From: Pelotomaculum sp.
GTDB taxonomy: Bacteria > Bacillota > Desulfotomaculia > Desulfotomaculales > Pelotomaculaceae
DNA length: 64,000 nucleotides
Assembly: GCA_018435055.1 (NCBI GenBank)
Contig: JAHDOA010000020.1
Location: 62,001 to 126,000 of the forward strand
Direction: 5' to 3'
Under the pieces are notes generated by a model. The model did no database searches and had not been told where the DNA came from. It saw only the letters and a program-made list of their open reading frames with translations. The stretch's first letter is position 1. The number at the start of each line of letters is the position of its first letter. This document shows, piece after piece, positions 38,121 through 62,718 of this stretch. The translations under genes were made by a program, and so were the position numbers.

Positions 38121-40577
38121 TTATGTCTCCGTGGCGACCCCCTTGATTTCTGAATCGACCCGGGCCATGGCCACCACGGTATCTCCTTGATCAAGCTTCA
38201 TCAGGGTAACTCCCTGGGTAGCCCGGCCAATTTTAGAGATATCCTCAGCGCTGAACCTGATCGCAATCCCTTCAGCGCTGACCATCATAATTTCCTCATC
38301 GTTTTTAACTACCTGTACAGCTACAACAGGGCCGTTCCTCTTGTTCGCTTTGATGTTAATAACACCTTTGCCGCCCCTGGTCTGCGCGCGGTACTCGGTA
38401 AGCAGGGTCCGTTTGCCAAACCCATTGGCTGTTACTGTGAGCAAATATGCCTCGGGCCGCACGGTCTCCATACCTACAACCGCGTCACCGGCCTTCAGAC
38501 TGACTCCCTTTACACCGCGAGTATTGCGGCCCATCGGACGCACCTGCTCCTCCGGAAAACGGATGGCCAGCCCTTTTCTTGTAGCCAGTACGATCTGTTC
38601 TTCCCCGTTGGTGAGTTTTACATCCACAAGCTGGTCCTCTTCATTCAGGGAGATGGCTATAATGCCGTCCCGCCGGGAGTTGTCATACTGATCAAGGGAT
38701 GTTTTTTTGACCAGGCCGTACCGGGTGGCCATGAACAGGTATTGCTCGCAGTCAAATTCTTTGATCGGGATCACCGCCGTAATTTTTTCATCGCCGCCAA
38801 TATAGAGCAGGTTAACGATCGCGGTGCCCCTGGCCTGCCGTCCGGCTTCGGGTATTTCATGCACCTTCAGGCGGAATACCTTGCCCCGGTTGGTAAAAAA
38901 CAGGAAAAAGTGATGTGTTGTAGTCACAAAGAGGTGCCGCACGAAATCTTCCGTTTTAGTGCCCATGGCCATGACGCCACGGCCGCCGCGGCGCTGGTTC
39001 CGGTAGGTGTCCAGGGGGATTCTCTTTATATAGCCCTGGTTGGTGATTGTTATTACAACGTCTTCTTCCGGAATCAGGTCCTCGATTTCCAATGTCATTT
39101 CTTCATCCGATACAAAGGTGCGCCGTGTGTCGGCATATTTTTTCTTAACTGCTAATAGCTCTTTTTTAATGATATCAAGGACCTTCTGCTCGCTTTCCAG
39201 AATGCCGCGCAGGTAAGCAATTTTGGCCAGGAGCTCATTGTATTCCTGATCGAGTTTTTCGCGCTCCAGACCGGTCAGTTGCCGCAGCCGCATTTCAACG
39301 ATAGCTTCCGCCTGTTTTTCCGATAACGAAAATCTTTCACGTAAAGCTTTTTTGGCTATATTTGTGGTGTGGGAAGACCGGATTATTTTTATAACCTCGT
39401 CCAGGTAGGCAATGGCTATGCGCAGTCCCTCTAAAATATGCGCGCGTTCCTCGGCCTTTCTAAGATCAAAGCGTGTGCGTCTGACGATAACATCTTTTTG
39501 GTGTTCCAGGTAATAAAATAATACCTGTTTCAAGTTTAATACCCGTGGCTGCCCGTCCACCAGAGCCAGCATAATCACCCCGAAGCTATCCTGCAGCTGG
39601 GTGTGTTTGTAAAGTTGGTTTAGGATTACCTGTGGGTTGGCATCCCGCCGGAGTTCAATCATGATCCTCATGCCGCGGCGGTCGGATTCGTCCCTCAGAT
39701 CAGTGATCCCGTCAATCTTCTTGTTCTTAACCAGATCGGCTATTTTTTCTATCAACTTGGCTTTGTTGACCTGGTAAGGTATTTCATTAACAATAATGCG
39801 GCTTTTACCGTTATTGGCTTTTTCGATCGAGGTCTGGGCACGCACTTTAATAGCTCCCCTGCCGGTGCGATAAGCGTTCAGGATGCCTCCCCTGCCCATA
39901 ATTTTACCGCCGGTGGGAAAATCAGGCCCCTTGATTACGGTCATAATATCTTTGACCTCTGCTTCGGGGTTGTTGATCAGCATGATCACCCCGTCAATCA
40001 CCTCGGCCAGGTTATGGGGGGGTATGTTGGTGGCCATGCCCACGGCTATGCCGGCCGACCCGTTTATCAGCAGGTTTGGTATACGGCAAGGCAGAACGGT
40101 TGGTTCCTCGGTTTTTTCATCGTAGTTGGGAATAAAGTCGACCGTTTCTTTTTCAATATCCACCAGCATTTCTGTGGCTATCCTGGCCATCCGCGCTTCG
40201 GTGTACCGCATGGCCGCAGCGGAGTCGCCATCCACAGAGCCAAAGTTGCCATGGCCGTCCACCAGAGGATAACGACTGGCAAAATCCTGGGCCAACCTGA
40301 CCAGGGCGTCATATACGGCAACATCACCGTGCGGGTGATATTTTGCCAGGACCTCCCCTACTATATAAGCAGATTTGCGGTGAGACTTGTCCGGCGTCAG
40401 GCCCAGAGAATGCATGGCATACAGAATGCGGCGGTGTACCGGCTTTAAGCCGTCCCTCACATCCGGCAGCGCCCGTCCCACAATAACGCTCATGGCGTAA
40501 TCGAGGTAAGAGTGCTTCATTTCTTCATTTATATCAATTGGAACCACTTTACCGGTTAAAGACGGCAAGTTGGTCAC
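38121..40577 (-). CDS. gyrA: DNA gyrase subunit A
   Basis: GyrA cuts and rejoins DNA to introduce negative supercoils with GyrB. The 818 residues are complete: an N-terminal winged helix, the catalytic Tyr in [14 protein letters not shown] near residue 124, the quinolone-resistance region ([17 protein letters not shown]), a coiled coil, and the C-terminal beta-pinwheel with the gyrase box QRRGGRGV near 540. The start follows a GGAGGTGACC site. It is separated from gyrB by about 1.2 kb of small ORFs. Confidence 0.98.
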
Positions 40578-60448: not shown

Positions 60449-60562
60449 GCGATTATAAATATTTTTTCTGAGTAAATACGGTAAAAATGCAGACATTAAA
60501 GGCGAAGCGGTATGGTGACACATCTCTATTTCTGCATCATTATATCGTTGCATGGCGCCAGG

Positions 60563-60627
60563 CAGAGGAATGGGGACACATCTCAGCTTATGGGCATTCC
60601 TCCGGGGTCGAGATATGTCCCCGATCC
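60563..60627. repeat. REP-like imperfect palindrome, copy at 60.6 kb
   Basis: CAGAGGAATGGGGACACATC pairs with GAGATATGTCCCCGATC about 30 bases on, with GGGCATTCCTCC between. It matches the copy at 33690-33753 through most of its length. A single GACACATCTC is also seen at 60514-60523. Confidence 0.65.
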
Positions 60628-60704
60628 GATCGGGATGGCTGGGGCATGTTAAGAAAATGATCATTAAAAACGGTACAGGTATCCTGACAAAGGGAGGTTT
60701 GAAA

Positions 60705-62117
60705 ATGACTGATAACAAGGAACAGCACCCTGCGGCTAGGTTGGCGTACCGCAGGGACAACGCCTGGGACCGTATGGGTAGCGGCGAAAGAAGCGCGGCG
60801 CAGGCTTTTTGCGAGAAATATAAAAGGTTTCTGGGATCCGCAAAAACGGAACGGGAAGCGGTGGCTGCCGCGCAGGTTCACCTGGTAGAGGCGGGTTTCC
60901 GCCCTCTGCCGGATACCGCCATGTTGAGACCGGGGGATAAGGTCTATACTGTAAACCGCCGCAAGGCATTAATTGCGTCCGTTATCGGAAAAAACCCGGC
61001 GGCGTCCGGTTTCAACATCATCGGCGCGCACATTGACAGTCCCCGCCTGGATTTGAAGCCGCAGCCTCTTTATGAGGAGGACGGTTTGGCCTTGCTTAAG
61101 ACTCATTATTACGGGGGGATAAAGAAATACCAGTGGCTTTCCGTACCGCTGGCCATGCACGGTGTGGTAATTAAAGGTGACGGGACCGCAGTCTCTGTTG
61201 TAATCGGGGAAAAGCCGGGGGAACCCGTTTTTACCGTGGCTGATCTTTTGCCGCATCTGGCCAAGGACCAGATGGACAAGAAAATGGCCGATGCTGTTCC
61301 CGGGGAAAGTTTAAATGTTTTAATGGGAGGTATCCCTGTAGGCGCGGTTGATCTTAAAGACCGCTTCAAGCTTGCTGTTTTGGAACGACTGAACAAGCTA
61401 TACGGCATAGTTGAAGAGGACTTGATCAGTGCGGAAATTGAGCTGGTCCCCGCCTGGAGGCCAGCTGATGTAGGCCTGGACAGCAGTTTTGTCGGCGGTT
61501 ACGGCCAGGACGACAGGGTGTGTGTTTACACTGCCCTGCGCGCTGTGGCAGAAATGGGTGTGCCGGAACGAACAGCCCTGGTAGTGCTGGCTGACAAGGA
61601 GGAGATTGGCAGCGCCGGCAATACAGGCATGGAGTCATCTTTTTTTGTCAACGCGACAGCAGAAATTGTATCCCGGTGTTTGCCGGGATACAATGAACTG
61701 GCGCTGCGCCGGGTTCTGTCCCATTCCCGGGCACTTTCTGCGGATGTTAACGCCGCGCTGGATCCGAATTACGGCGAGGTCTTTGAAAAAGCAAACGCGG
61801 CGCGCCTGGGCGGGGGGGTTGTGCTGACCAAGTATACCGGCAGCAGGGGCAAATACGCCACAAGCGACGCGCATGCTGAAGTAATGGCTGATATCAGGCG
61901 TTTATTTAACAGCGCGGGAGTGGTCTGGCAGACCGGTGAATTGGGCAAGGTCGACCAGGGGGGAGGCGGCACTATCGCCCACATCATGGCTTCCCACGAT
62001 ATGGATGTACTGGACTGCGGCGTGGCTTTGCAGGGTATGCACTCGACTTTTGAGATAGCCAGCAAGGCCGACGTATACATGGCTTATAAAGGATATAAAG
62101 CTTTTCTGACAAGTTAA
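60705..62117 (+). CDS. M18-family aspartyl aminopeptidase
   Basis: This zinc metallopeptidase removes N-terminal residues from peptides. The start is ATG 60705 behind AAAGGGAGG; the longer upstream frame is not needed. The 470 residues contain the metal-binding regions GAHIDSPRLDLKPQPLYE, GQDDRVCVYTA near residue 265, ADKEEIGSAGNTGM, and DAHAEVMADIRRL with the final His in GMHSTFEIASKAD. It is complete. It lies alone between repeats and the hairpin-rich gap. Confidence 0.94.
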   Translation: MTDNKEQHPAARLAYRRDNAWDRMGSGERSAAQAFCEKYKRFLGSAKTEREAVAAAQVHLVEAGFRPLPDTAMLRPGDKVYTVNRRKALIASVIGKNPAASGFNIIGAHIDSPRLDLKPQPLYEEDGLALLKTHYYGGIKKYQWLSVPLAMHGVVIKGDGTAVSVVIGEKPGEPVFTVADLLPHLAKDQMDKKMADAVPGESLNVLMGGIPVGAVDLKDRFKLAVLERLNKLYGIVEEDLISAEIELVPAWRPADVGLDSSFVGGYGQDDRVCVYTALRAVAEMGVPERTALVVLADKEEIGSAGNTGMESSFFVNATAEIVSRCLPGYNELALRRVLSHSRALSADVNAALDPNYGEVFEKANAARLGGGVVLTKYTGSRGKYATSDAHAEVMADIRRLFNSAGVVWQTGELGKVDQGGGGTIAHIMASHDMDVLDCGVALQGMHSTFEIASKADVYMAYKGYKAFLTS

Positions 62118-62430
62118 CAAAAAAGGAGGTGAAAGACCTGGTTTTTTGGAAGTAGCACAGAAAACAACTGTTAGCAGGGTAAGCCCTGTCATAAGTTTTG
62201 CGCGGCGGCACAGTACACGCAGAAAAAGGCTGTTGCCGCAAGTCACAATCAGGCGGTGGGAAACATCCCCTTCCGGGCAGCGCCCAGCACTCAACCTGGC
62301 GTTTGACAGGAAAGATTAGAAGTTTTATCAATCCGCCAGGGAGTCAACCTATCAAGCATAGGTTGAGTACCGGGGCGGCTTTTAAGCCACCCGGAATACA
62401 GAATTAAATCTATGGCTTGAAGTTGAATCT
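62118..62430 (+). other. Hairpin-rich intergenic region, possible structured RNA
   Basis: No reliable gene is present, yet the sequence is dense in stems. Examples are CAGGG/CCCTG, GCGGCACAG/CTGTTGCCGC, GGGC/GCCC, CCTGGCG/CGCCAGG (7 bp), CAACCTAT/ATAGGTTG (8 bp, loop CAAGC) and CCGGGGCGGCTT/AAGCCACCCGG. It begins with AAAGGAGGTG, which could serve a short TTG-started ORF of about 57 codons. I cannot match it to a known RNA class. It may be a non-coding RNA, a leader of the DUF951 gene, or a remnant of an element. Confidence 0.5.
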
Positions 62431-62718
62431 GTGATACTGCCTCCCGTTAGTCGGCGGGAGAGAAAGCAAAACTCCGGGCTACCTTTTATTAAACGGATTT
62501 GTTTAGCTTTTAGAAACCAGGTTTTCGCCATTTACAAATATGCTGTCGGTGATGTGATAAAGACAAAAAAACCCCACCCGTGCGGCGGGGATTTGTGGGA
62601 GGTTCTCCGTGTGGGAGTGGATTTCCGGATAAAATGTGTAAAATGCGGCAGGGTGCTGCTGCTGCCGCGGCCAAAATTCGAGAAATCGGTCAAAACAGTA
62701 ATGCAGCCGGGTGAATAA
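62431..62718 (+). CDS. DUF951 (YyzM-type) protein
   Basis: The core YAVGDVIKTKKPHPCGGDLW, with CVKCGRVLLLPRPKFEK, is the short DUF951 family (about 65 residues) found just ahead of rpsF in Firmicutes. The in-frame GTG at 62431 gives 95 residues but has no good ribosome-binding site. The family would begin near 62530, where the only candidate is a non-standard ATT. The start is therefore unresolved. The two CxxC-like pairs suggest a zinc-binding core. Confidence 0.8.
   Translation: MILPPVSRRERKQNSGLPFIKRICLAFRNQVFAIYKYAVGDVIKTKKPHPCGGDLWEVLRVGVDFRIKCVKCGRVLLLPRPKFEKSVKTVMQPGE

What the first reader, a model, noticed from the sequence alone, without database searches (positions are those of the whole stretch)
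62118..62430. Dense run of hairpins between the M18 peptidase and DUF951 that fits no RNA class I know
At least six stems of 5-10 bp occur in about 300 bases, with loops of 3-16 bases and little spacing, which is more than expected by chance. A strong AAAGGAGGTG at its start has only a poor short ORF behind it. It could be a non-coding RNA, a leader that controls DUF951 (whose start is also odd), or the end of a lost mobile element.
Basis: seen in the sequence. Interest (0 to 1): 0.55.

Follow-up and report, generated by a model that had tools for sequence, protein, structure and literature searches.

The report
Transposon guide-RNA relic before DUF951
The run of hairpins is the leftover RNA-coding end of a jumping gene whose intact relatives pair it with a likely RNA-guided DNA-cutting enzyme; it sits in the ribosome-binding site of a small gene, and related copies in other bacteria look like long-conserved structured leaders of ordinary genes.

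Summary
The hairpins are real and are a structured RNA. Complete copies elsewhere are IS607-type transposons (tnpA, divergent tnpB); the RNA is their 3' end, overlapping the end of tnpB and closing on the right end, AAACCAGG. Its stems covary strongly on the + strand. Most recognisable left ends follow GGAGG, a Shine-Dalgarno sequence; in two congeners the DUF951 site is empty and has such a sequence. The window copy has lost left end, promoter, tnpA and tnpB; its genome holds only tnpB relics of this kind. I read it as a guide-RNA (omegaRNA-like) relic, now part of the DUF951 leader. The surprise lies outside the window: 7 of 65 copies read have a long tnpB, some others form compact mobile elements, and 50 of 59 have a start codon 4-18 nt downstream. 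At a CoA-transferase gene the RNA is seen in 16 of 17 genomes of eight genera with compensatory changes, suggesting exaptation as a leader. No Rfam family matches. Guide activity and regulation are inferred.

The parts
62118..62521 (+). 5'-truncated copy of the RNA/right-end module of an IS607-type TnpA-TnpB transposon
   Evidence: copies in own genome and relatives; alignment; R1 match
62118..62171 (+). remnant of the tnpB 3' coding end, including AAAGGAGGTG
   Evidence: alignment to copies whose open frame ends ..KSLVSWQ..
62137..62146 (+). 5' strand of closing helix P1 (CCTGGTTTTT), can pair with 62512-62521
   Evidence: sequence; most tnpB-linked copies have CCTGGTTTC / GAAACCAGG
62288..62369 (.). 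nested short repeat with terminal inverted repeats (CACTCAACCT..AGGTTGAGTA); in the family only in G000 and G008, inverted in G008:C1
62386..62521 (+). conserved 3' domain (model R1, 103.2 bits); 21 of 26 scored pairs intact
62441..62460 (+). hairpin P3, CTCCCG-TTAGTCGG-CGGGAG
   Evidence: sequence; covariation
62512..62521 (+). transposon right end / 3' strand of P1, AGAAACCAGG
   Evidence: shared end of copies, variable sequence beyond
62522..62541 (+). sequence that would serve as guide if the RNA were used (inferred by analogy)
   Evidence: position after the right end; 20-nt guide in ISFba1 (PMC11061315, abstract)
62530..62718 (+). DUF951 gene, predicted ATT start (frame open from 62431)
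   Evidence: PF06107 E 1.2e-26; congeners G001 and G004
60705..62117 (+). M18 peptidase gene upstream, full-length open frame
   Evidence: PF02127 E 3.3e-84, profile 1-431 of 432

Best explanation
The feature is the 3' RNA module and right end of an IS607-type transposon that inserted by its GG end into the Shine-Dalgarno sequence of DUF951 and then lost its left end, promoter, tnpA and nearly all of tnpB, together with the native M18-DUF951 spacer. In complete copies this RNA most likely is the guide-RNA scaffold of TnpB: transcribed from the element, closed by a helix between the end of tnpB and the right end, with the host sequence beyond CCAGG as guide, directing TnpB to empty sites (GGAGG plus the start of that gene). 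Shown: the repeat family, linkage to tnpA/tnpB, covarying stems, GGAGG at most recognisable left ends, empty DUF951 sites in two congeners, only tnpB relics of this kind in this genome. Inferred: TnpB binding and guide function, the deletion history, and that the window copy is now only a structured, partly decayed leader between M18 and DUF951.
For: 10 matches in the own genome; 31 of 100 genomes match, own included. R1 hits 21 of 25 family genomes, own included (76 places), and 33 of 101 class genomes. TnpAs of intact elements: NF033518 IS607 transposase 203.3 and 199.6 bits, cut-off 110; 172.7 in a fused ORF. Element about 2.5 kb. Covariation: 92.3% of 1554 cells paired, 27 of 29 pairs with double changes, 0 of 500 shuffles as high (alignment fitted to the model); 13-copy alignment not so fitted: 94.9%, 9 of 29, 0 of 500. 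11 of 11 left ends found by an inner motif follow GGAGG. Congener sites: GAGGGGG, GAGGAGG. Own genome: two C-terminal tnpB relics, no IS607 TnpA over the cut-off.
Against: This TnpB is divergent: NF040570 is under its 100-bit cut-off in 5 of 5 scanned (38.5-63.7), TIGR01766 over its 32-bit cut-off in 2 of 5; no PDB chain matches; RuvC-III shows H/E where I recall an Asp is usual. Some left ends lack GGAGG: three compact copies, two of them distinct (G016:C5:25197, G016:C34 and its duplicate), and the two G047 ends read. No transcript, binding or cleavage data. Only 7 of 65 copies read have a long adjacent tnpB. RAGATH-18, the known IS607 guide RNA, does not match.
Confidence: 0.82

Rival explanations
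1. The RNA is primarily a cis-acting leader: it folds next to the start codon of the downstream gene and sets translation or mRNA stability; the transposon spreads it, but host retention is for leader function, including at DUF951.
For: 50 of 59 non-redundant copies have an open start codon 4-18 nt downstream, against 2343 of 20000 random positions. CoA-transferase gene: leader seen in 16 of 17 genomes of 8 genera with varied but paired P3, P4 and P1.
Against: Insertion into Shine-Dalgarno sites alone explains the position. The window copy is absent in both congeners read and has broken pairs (21 of 26). No ligand, transcript or expression data. In other orthologous groups broken pairs are as common as or commoner than compensatory ones. 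Only 7 of the 17 CoA leaders reach E 0.001 with R1; the rest were recognised by eye.
Confidence: 0.35
2. It is a self-splicing element (IStron-like): the RNA splices out and restores the split Shine-Dalgarno sequence.
For: The element splits GGAGG-type sites, and IStrons are known in IS605/IS607 elements (recalled).
Against: No group I or II intron match at permissive thresholds. Compact copies have a promoter-like site inside the element, whose transcripts would lack a 5' splice site. The window copy has lost its left end. Five of 16 CoA leaders have AAGGAG beyond the right end, so splicing is not needed there.
Confidence: 0.04
3. It is a neutral fossil: the 3' end is retained only because it now provides the AGG of the DUF951 ribosome-binding site, and the upstream stems are decaying.
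For: Pairs intact: window 21 of 26, own genome 204 of 232 (87.9%), copies without tnpB 1170 of 1276 (91.7%), tnpB-linked 211 of 218 (one antisense row of 17 of 17 included by mistake; 194 of 201 without it). Gaps in the terminal helix. No partner tnpB.
Against: Stems elsewhere are kept by compensatory change at an orthologous gene, though not in every group.
Confidence: 0.5

Closest known systems
RAGATH-18-derived reRNA of IS607 TnpB (ISFba1; PMC11061315: abstract, passages and Discussion read)
   Same: IS607-type element; structured RNA downstream of tnpB; AG-rich TAM beside the left end (5'-AGGAG or 5'-GAGGG there, GGAGG at most left ends here); some RNA copies not next to tnpB (64% adjacent there, 7 of 65 here)
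   Different: No RAGATH-18 match in Rfam scans; TnpB about 490 codons against 330-433 aa and under the NCBI TnpB cut-off; here the RNA 5' end lies inside the tnpB coding end, whereas that paper calls its reRNA independent of the coding sequence
omegaRNA of IS200/IS605 TnpB (recalled; overlap with the coding sequence stated in the PMC11061315 Discussion)
   Same: RNA overlaps the 3' end of tnpB
   Different: Serine-recombinase TnpA here instead of the Y1 TnpA of IS200/IS605 (recalled)
Structured cis-regulatory leaders (riboswitch-like; recalled)
   Same: Directly upstream of start codons; stems kept with compensatory changes at one orthologous gene over eight genera
   Different: Same RNA in front of many unrelated genes and in mobile copies; no ligand or regulation known

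Membership tests
IS607-family TnpA-TnpB element | Serine-recombinase TnpA of IS607 type | tested here: met
   NF033518 203.3 (L066) and 199.6 bits (L062), cut-off 110, for complete relatives; absent in the window copy, and no match over the cut-off in its genome (7 weaker ones)
IS607-family TnpA-TnpB element | RNA-guided nuclease TnpB | tested here: inconclusive
   NF040570 under cut-off in 5 of 5, TIGR01766 over cut-off in 2 of 5; D289 and E350 invariant in 5 of 5, RuvC-III H/E
IS607-family TnpA-TnpB element | GG at the junctions of the insertion | tested here: met
   right end CCAGG in most of 65 copies; GGAGG before 11 of 11 left ends found by inner motif, with exceptions by other criteria; empty DUF951 sites
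TnpB guide RNA (omegaRNA/reRNA) | Conserved structured RNA at the 3' end of tnpB, ending at the right end | tested here: met
TnpB guide RNA (omegaRNA/reRNA) | Binds TnpB and guides cleavage by the flanking sequence | not testable with these tools
   needs biochemistry
RAGATH-18 RNA | Match to the Rfam covariance model | tested here: not met
   no match in Rfam 15, gathering or permissive
IStron (group I intron in an IS) | Group I intron core | tested here: not met
   no group I or II match
Structured cis-regulatory leader | Conserved stems at the same gene in related genomes | tested here: met
   for the CoA-transferase gene, 16 of 17 genomes read; mixed in other groups
Structured cis-regulatory leader | Present at DUF951 in congeners | tested here: not met
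   empty site in 2 of 2 read: G001, G004
Structured cis-regulatory leader | Changes expression of the downstream gene | not testable with these tools
   needs reporter assay

The most novel reading that the evidence does not exclude
A transposon guide-RNA module that lands in Shine-Dalgarno sequences has repeatedly been exapted as a structured leader at ribosome-binding sites. Compact tnpB-less elements carrying their own, possibly LexA-type, promoter and the RNA insert next to start codons; some become fixed and are maintained by selection for structure over genera, as at the CoA-transferase gene, giving a new class of leader RNA with a transposon origin, of which the window copy is a young or failing example.
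Probability: 0.45. Interest if true: 0.8.

Novelty: new variant of a known kind. Interest (0 to 1): 0.6.

Why it matters
It adds a structured RNA family not matched by Rfam 15, linked to a divergent TnpB lineage whose elements land in ribosome-binding sites. If the leader reading holds, it gives a traceable route from selfish guide RNA to host leader RNA, testable at one gene across eight genera.

Tried and rejected
Known RNA classes: Rfam at gathering level on the window and permissive on 62050-62600, 17 loci and 9 loci; the weak hits (Fungi_U3, sn1185, isrD, PyrR sites, microRNAs, Afu_190) I take as chance or unrelated. The short ORF behind AAAGGAGGTG was dropped as tnpB remnant. Intron reading: see rivals. 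An anti-Shine-Dalgarno role of CCUCC in P3 was dropped because P3 is CUUCCG in some copies. No relative of this TnpB was found in the PDB by sequence. Paper searches for this RNA, for tnpB-less guide RNAs or for IS607 at Shine-Dalgarno sites showed no description of it in their listings; only PMC11061315 was opened, so this is no proof of absence.

Counts, dropped rows and weak points: of 76 R1 places, 65 were read with context, 11 weaker ones were not. For one search, five G020/G023 duplicates of G016 were dropped and one place had too short a downstream sequence, leaving 59. Four of the 65 have under 400 nt upstream, so tnpB could not be judged there. A4 is fitted to R1 and contains six antisense matches; still kept one antisense row (L167). 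Seven-base P1 complementarity was found in 40 of 65 copies with no chance control, and some of these are surely chance. Promoter-like sites in L166 (1 found, 0.9 in shuffles) and L066 (2 found, 1.1) are not more numerous than chance; the argument is their place and 11 of 12 matches. The LexA-like box count (19 of 65; four of these are duplicates) has no chance control. In one search a slide of +1 gives 8 pairs with double changes against 7 for the structure itself (cells 18 against 21, score 0.212 against 0.316), because P4 is misaligned in some rows; further pair types are not above shuffles (400 of 500). For the three g6 genomes no P1 5' strand was assigned, and for G000 and G001 the script listed another helix than P3. 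G002 holds part of the CoA-transferase gene but was not read.

Full report
Observation. The window segment 62118-62430 folds better than dinucleotide shuffles on both strands (z -3.45 and -4.89). Nothing in Rfam 15 matches it above chance.

It is a repeat. The segment has 10 matches in the same genome; 31 of 100 genomes searched, own included, match. Alignment of 19 copies, the window's among them, shows shared conserved blocks and a shared right end, AGAAACCAGG in most, followed by unrelated sequence. In the more complete copies an open frame with RuvC-like motifs runs into the 5' part of the RNA. Comparison of copies gives an element of about 2.5 kb: left end, tnpA (215-218 codons), tnpB (about 490 codons stop to stop), RNA, right end. 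NCBIfam calls the TnpAs IS607 transposase (203.3 and 199.6 bits, cut-off 110). The TnpBs are divergent: NF040570 gives 38.5-63.7 bits in five, all under its cut-off of 100, and TIGR01766 passes its cut-off of 32 in two of five. One element (G008:C2) has tnpA and tnpB fused in one frame. Five aligned TnpBs keep RuvC D289 and E350, but RuvC-III carries H/E, and I see no zinc-finger cysteine pairs.

Structure. On 13 copies of the 3' domain, 94.9% of cells pair and 9 of 29 pairs change on both sides (0 of 500 shuffles as high; slid structures pair 33-45%). With the model extended to 64 distinct rows, 92.3% of 1554 cells pair and 27 of 29 pairs show double changes, 194 cells against 54.8 in shuffles; this alignment was fitted to the model and includes six antisense rows. 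A closing helix P1 joins GGUUUC, in tnpB-linked copies inside the last tnpB codons, with GAAACC of the right end. In the window P1 can form (62137-62146 with 62512-62521), but only 21 of 26 scored pairs of the 3' domain are intact, against 194 of 201 in tnpB-linked rows (211 of 218 with one antisense row) and 1170 of 1276 in the other copies. The window copy also carries a nested 82-nt inverted-repeat insert; in the 25 family genomes it matches only G008 and two pieces at another own-genome copy.

Target site. Left ends found by an inner motif are preceded by GGAGG in 11 of 11 cases. Exceptions found otherwise: of five compact copies located by their promoter, two follow GGAGG and three (two distinct) do not; and the two G047 left ends read do not. 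At DUF951 two congeners are empty: G001 has GAGGGGG and G004 GAGGAGG where the window has the element ending in CCAGG. So the element entered the Shine-Dalgarno sequence. A later deletion joined the M18 stop codon to the end of tnpB; a short shared TTAAC/CTAAC suggests microhomology (inference). DUF951 itself (PF06107) lacks a canonical in-frame start at the right distance also in those congeners; I predict ATT at 62530.

Partner. The own genome has two C-terminal tnpB relics of this kind, a TnpB-family gene matched in two pieces plus one weak fragment that the lineage's TnpB does not find, and no IS607 TnpA over the cut-off. In the family 7 of 25 genomes match the TnpB query, four of them (G008, G010, G020, G022) nearly full length, while 21 of 25 hold the RNA. 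Of 65 RNA copies read in context, 7 have a long tnpB match; four have too little upstream sequence to judge.

Compact copies. In G008, G016 and G020 and G010, copies without tnpB of very roughly 380-475 nt keep a left end and the RNA; L166 has a promoter-like site between them (such sites are not more frequent there than in shuffles). Three in G008 are near identical at three loci, so they moved recently. In 19 of 65 copies a TTGA is followed by a palindrome within two mismatches of CGAACRNRYGTTYC, the LexA/DinR box of Bacillus as I recall it; the tnpA promoters of L063 and L066 match it exactly. SOS control is a hypothesis.

Position at start codons. Of 59 non-redundant copies with enough downstream sequence, 50 have an ATG, GTG or TTG opening at least 60 codons 4-18 nt beyond the right end, against 2343 of 20000 random positions and 404 of 3215 positions after AGG. 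Of the nine failures, three are L32 genes of about 59 codons, two are other short frames, and one is DUF951. Downstream genes checked in Pfam: ribosomal L32 and L28, CTP synthase, AICARFT/IMPCHase, a PyrR-like phosphoribosyltransferase, ThiC, superoxide dismutase and YlbF.

An old copy. A CoA-transferase gene (PF01144) occurs in 18 of 25 family genomes. I read 17 upstream regions: 16, from eight genera, carry the RNA at the same place; G003 does not. R1 finds 7 of these at E 0.001 or better; the other nine rest on aligned position and motifs. The loop TAGTCG is kept in 13 of 16. P3 occurs as CUCCCG/CGGGAG, CUUCCG/CGGAAG, CUCCUG/CAGGAG and AUCCCG/CGGGAU; P4 as AAAUCCGG/CCGGGUUU, AGGCCGG/CCGGCCU, GAGAAUCUAA/UUAGAUUCUU and others; P1 as GGUUUCU/AGAAACC and GGUUUCC/GGAAACC. 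The count gives 86.1% of 208 cells paired and 21 double-change cells against 7.4 in shuffles (0 of 500), with the caveat that a +1 slide scores 8 pairs to 7. In smaller orthologous groups the picture is mixed: apeB leaders L155/L158 one compensatory and no broken pair; YlbF leaders 0-2 compensatory and 3-4 broken; L32 leaders 1 and 2; the g5 pair 0 and 4; the Memo-type leaders of the window's genus 4 and 7.

Range. R1 hits 33 of 101 genomes of the class, own included, 21 of 51 genera. Named TnpB-bearing loci are from Pelotomaculum propionicicum, Pelotomaculum sp. PtaB.Bin013, Desulforamulus putei, Desulfotruncus arcticus and two Peptococcaceae MAGs.

Comparison. The nearest described system I found is the RAGATH-18 reRNA of IS607 TnpB (PMC11061315: abstract, passages and Discussion read): AG-rich TAM beside the left end, 187-nt scaffold, 20-nt guide, 64% of RNAs next to tnpB, RNA independent of the coding sequence. 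Here the GGAGG and the right-end position agree; the RNA family, the overlap with tnpB and the rarity of adjacent tnpB differ. It works like a TnpB guide RNA by anatomy; activity is untested.

Verdict. The window feature itself is a decaying relic and of modest interest. The family it uncovers, a transposon RNA module at ribosome-binding sites, mostly parted from its nuclease yet structurally maintained at least at one gene, is the noteworthy part.

Noticed in passing
L211 and orthologues (CoA-transferase gene; own genome G000:C11 about 38258-38386): The same RNA is seen as a leader in 16 of 17 genomes of eight genera, with compensatory changes.
   Followed up: yes
L066 3616-3629, L063 1493-1506; compact copies L164-L166: Element promoter carries a LexA/DinR-like palindrome (recalled consensus) in the promoter spacer; 19 of 65 copies within two mismatches, no chance control. 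Suggests SOS-controlled transposition.
   Followed up: partly
L066, L062, L063, L060, L064 TnpB (alignment A5): Divergent TnpB of about 490 codons without visible zinc finger and with H/E in RuvC-III where I recall Asp is usual.
   Followed up: partly
62288-62369: Nested inverted-repeat insert inside the RNA, inverted at the same site in G008:C1, with one match (G008:C35:49674-49767) away from any R1 hit; a mini-MITE or an invertible segment.
   Followed up: partly
62520-62535: DUF951 seems to start with ATT; the two congeners read also lack ATG, GTG or TTG there.
   Followed up: partly
L009 168-1565: TnpA (MerR HTH plus resolvase domain) fused in frame to the C-terminal half of TnpB.
   Followed up: no
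G047 (L050-L053, L064, L065): A relative of the same order with 13 R1 matches, most near identical in score; the copies fetched have full tnpB frames, so the element looks recently active there.
   Followed up: partly
60510-60640: Another inverted repeat (GACACATCTC .. GAGATATGTCC) upstream of the M18 gene.
   Followed up: no
G000:C49:302321-303113: A TnpB-family gene of the own genome, outside this lineage, matched in two overlapping pieces (possible frameshift).
   Followed up: no
L147, L153, L137 and L155, L158, L139: In genus g6 the RNA sits upstream of a YlbF gene and of an M18-like peptidase gene in three genomes each.
   Followed up: partly
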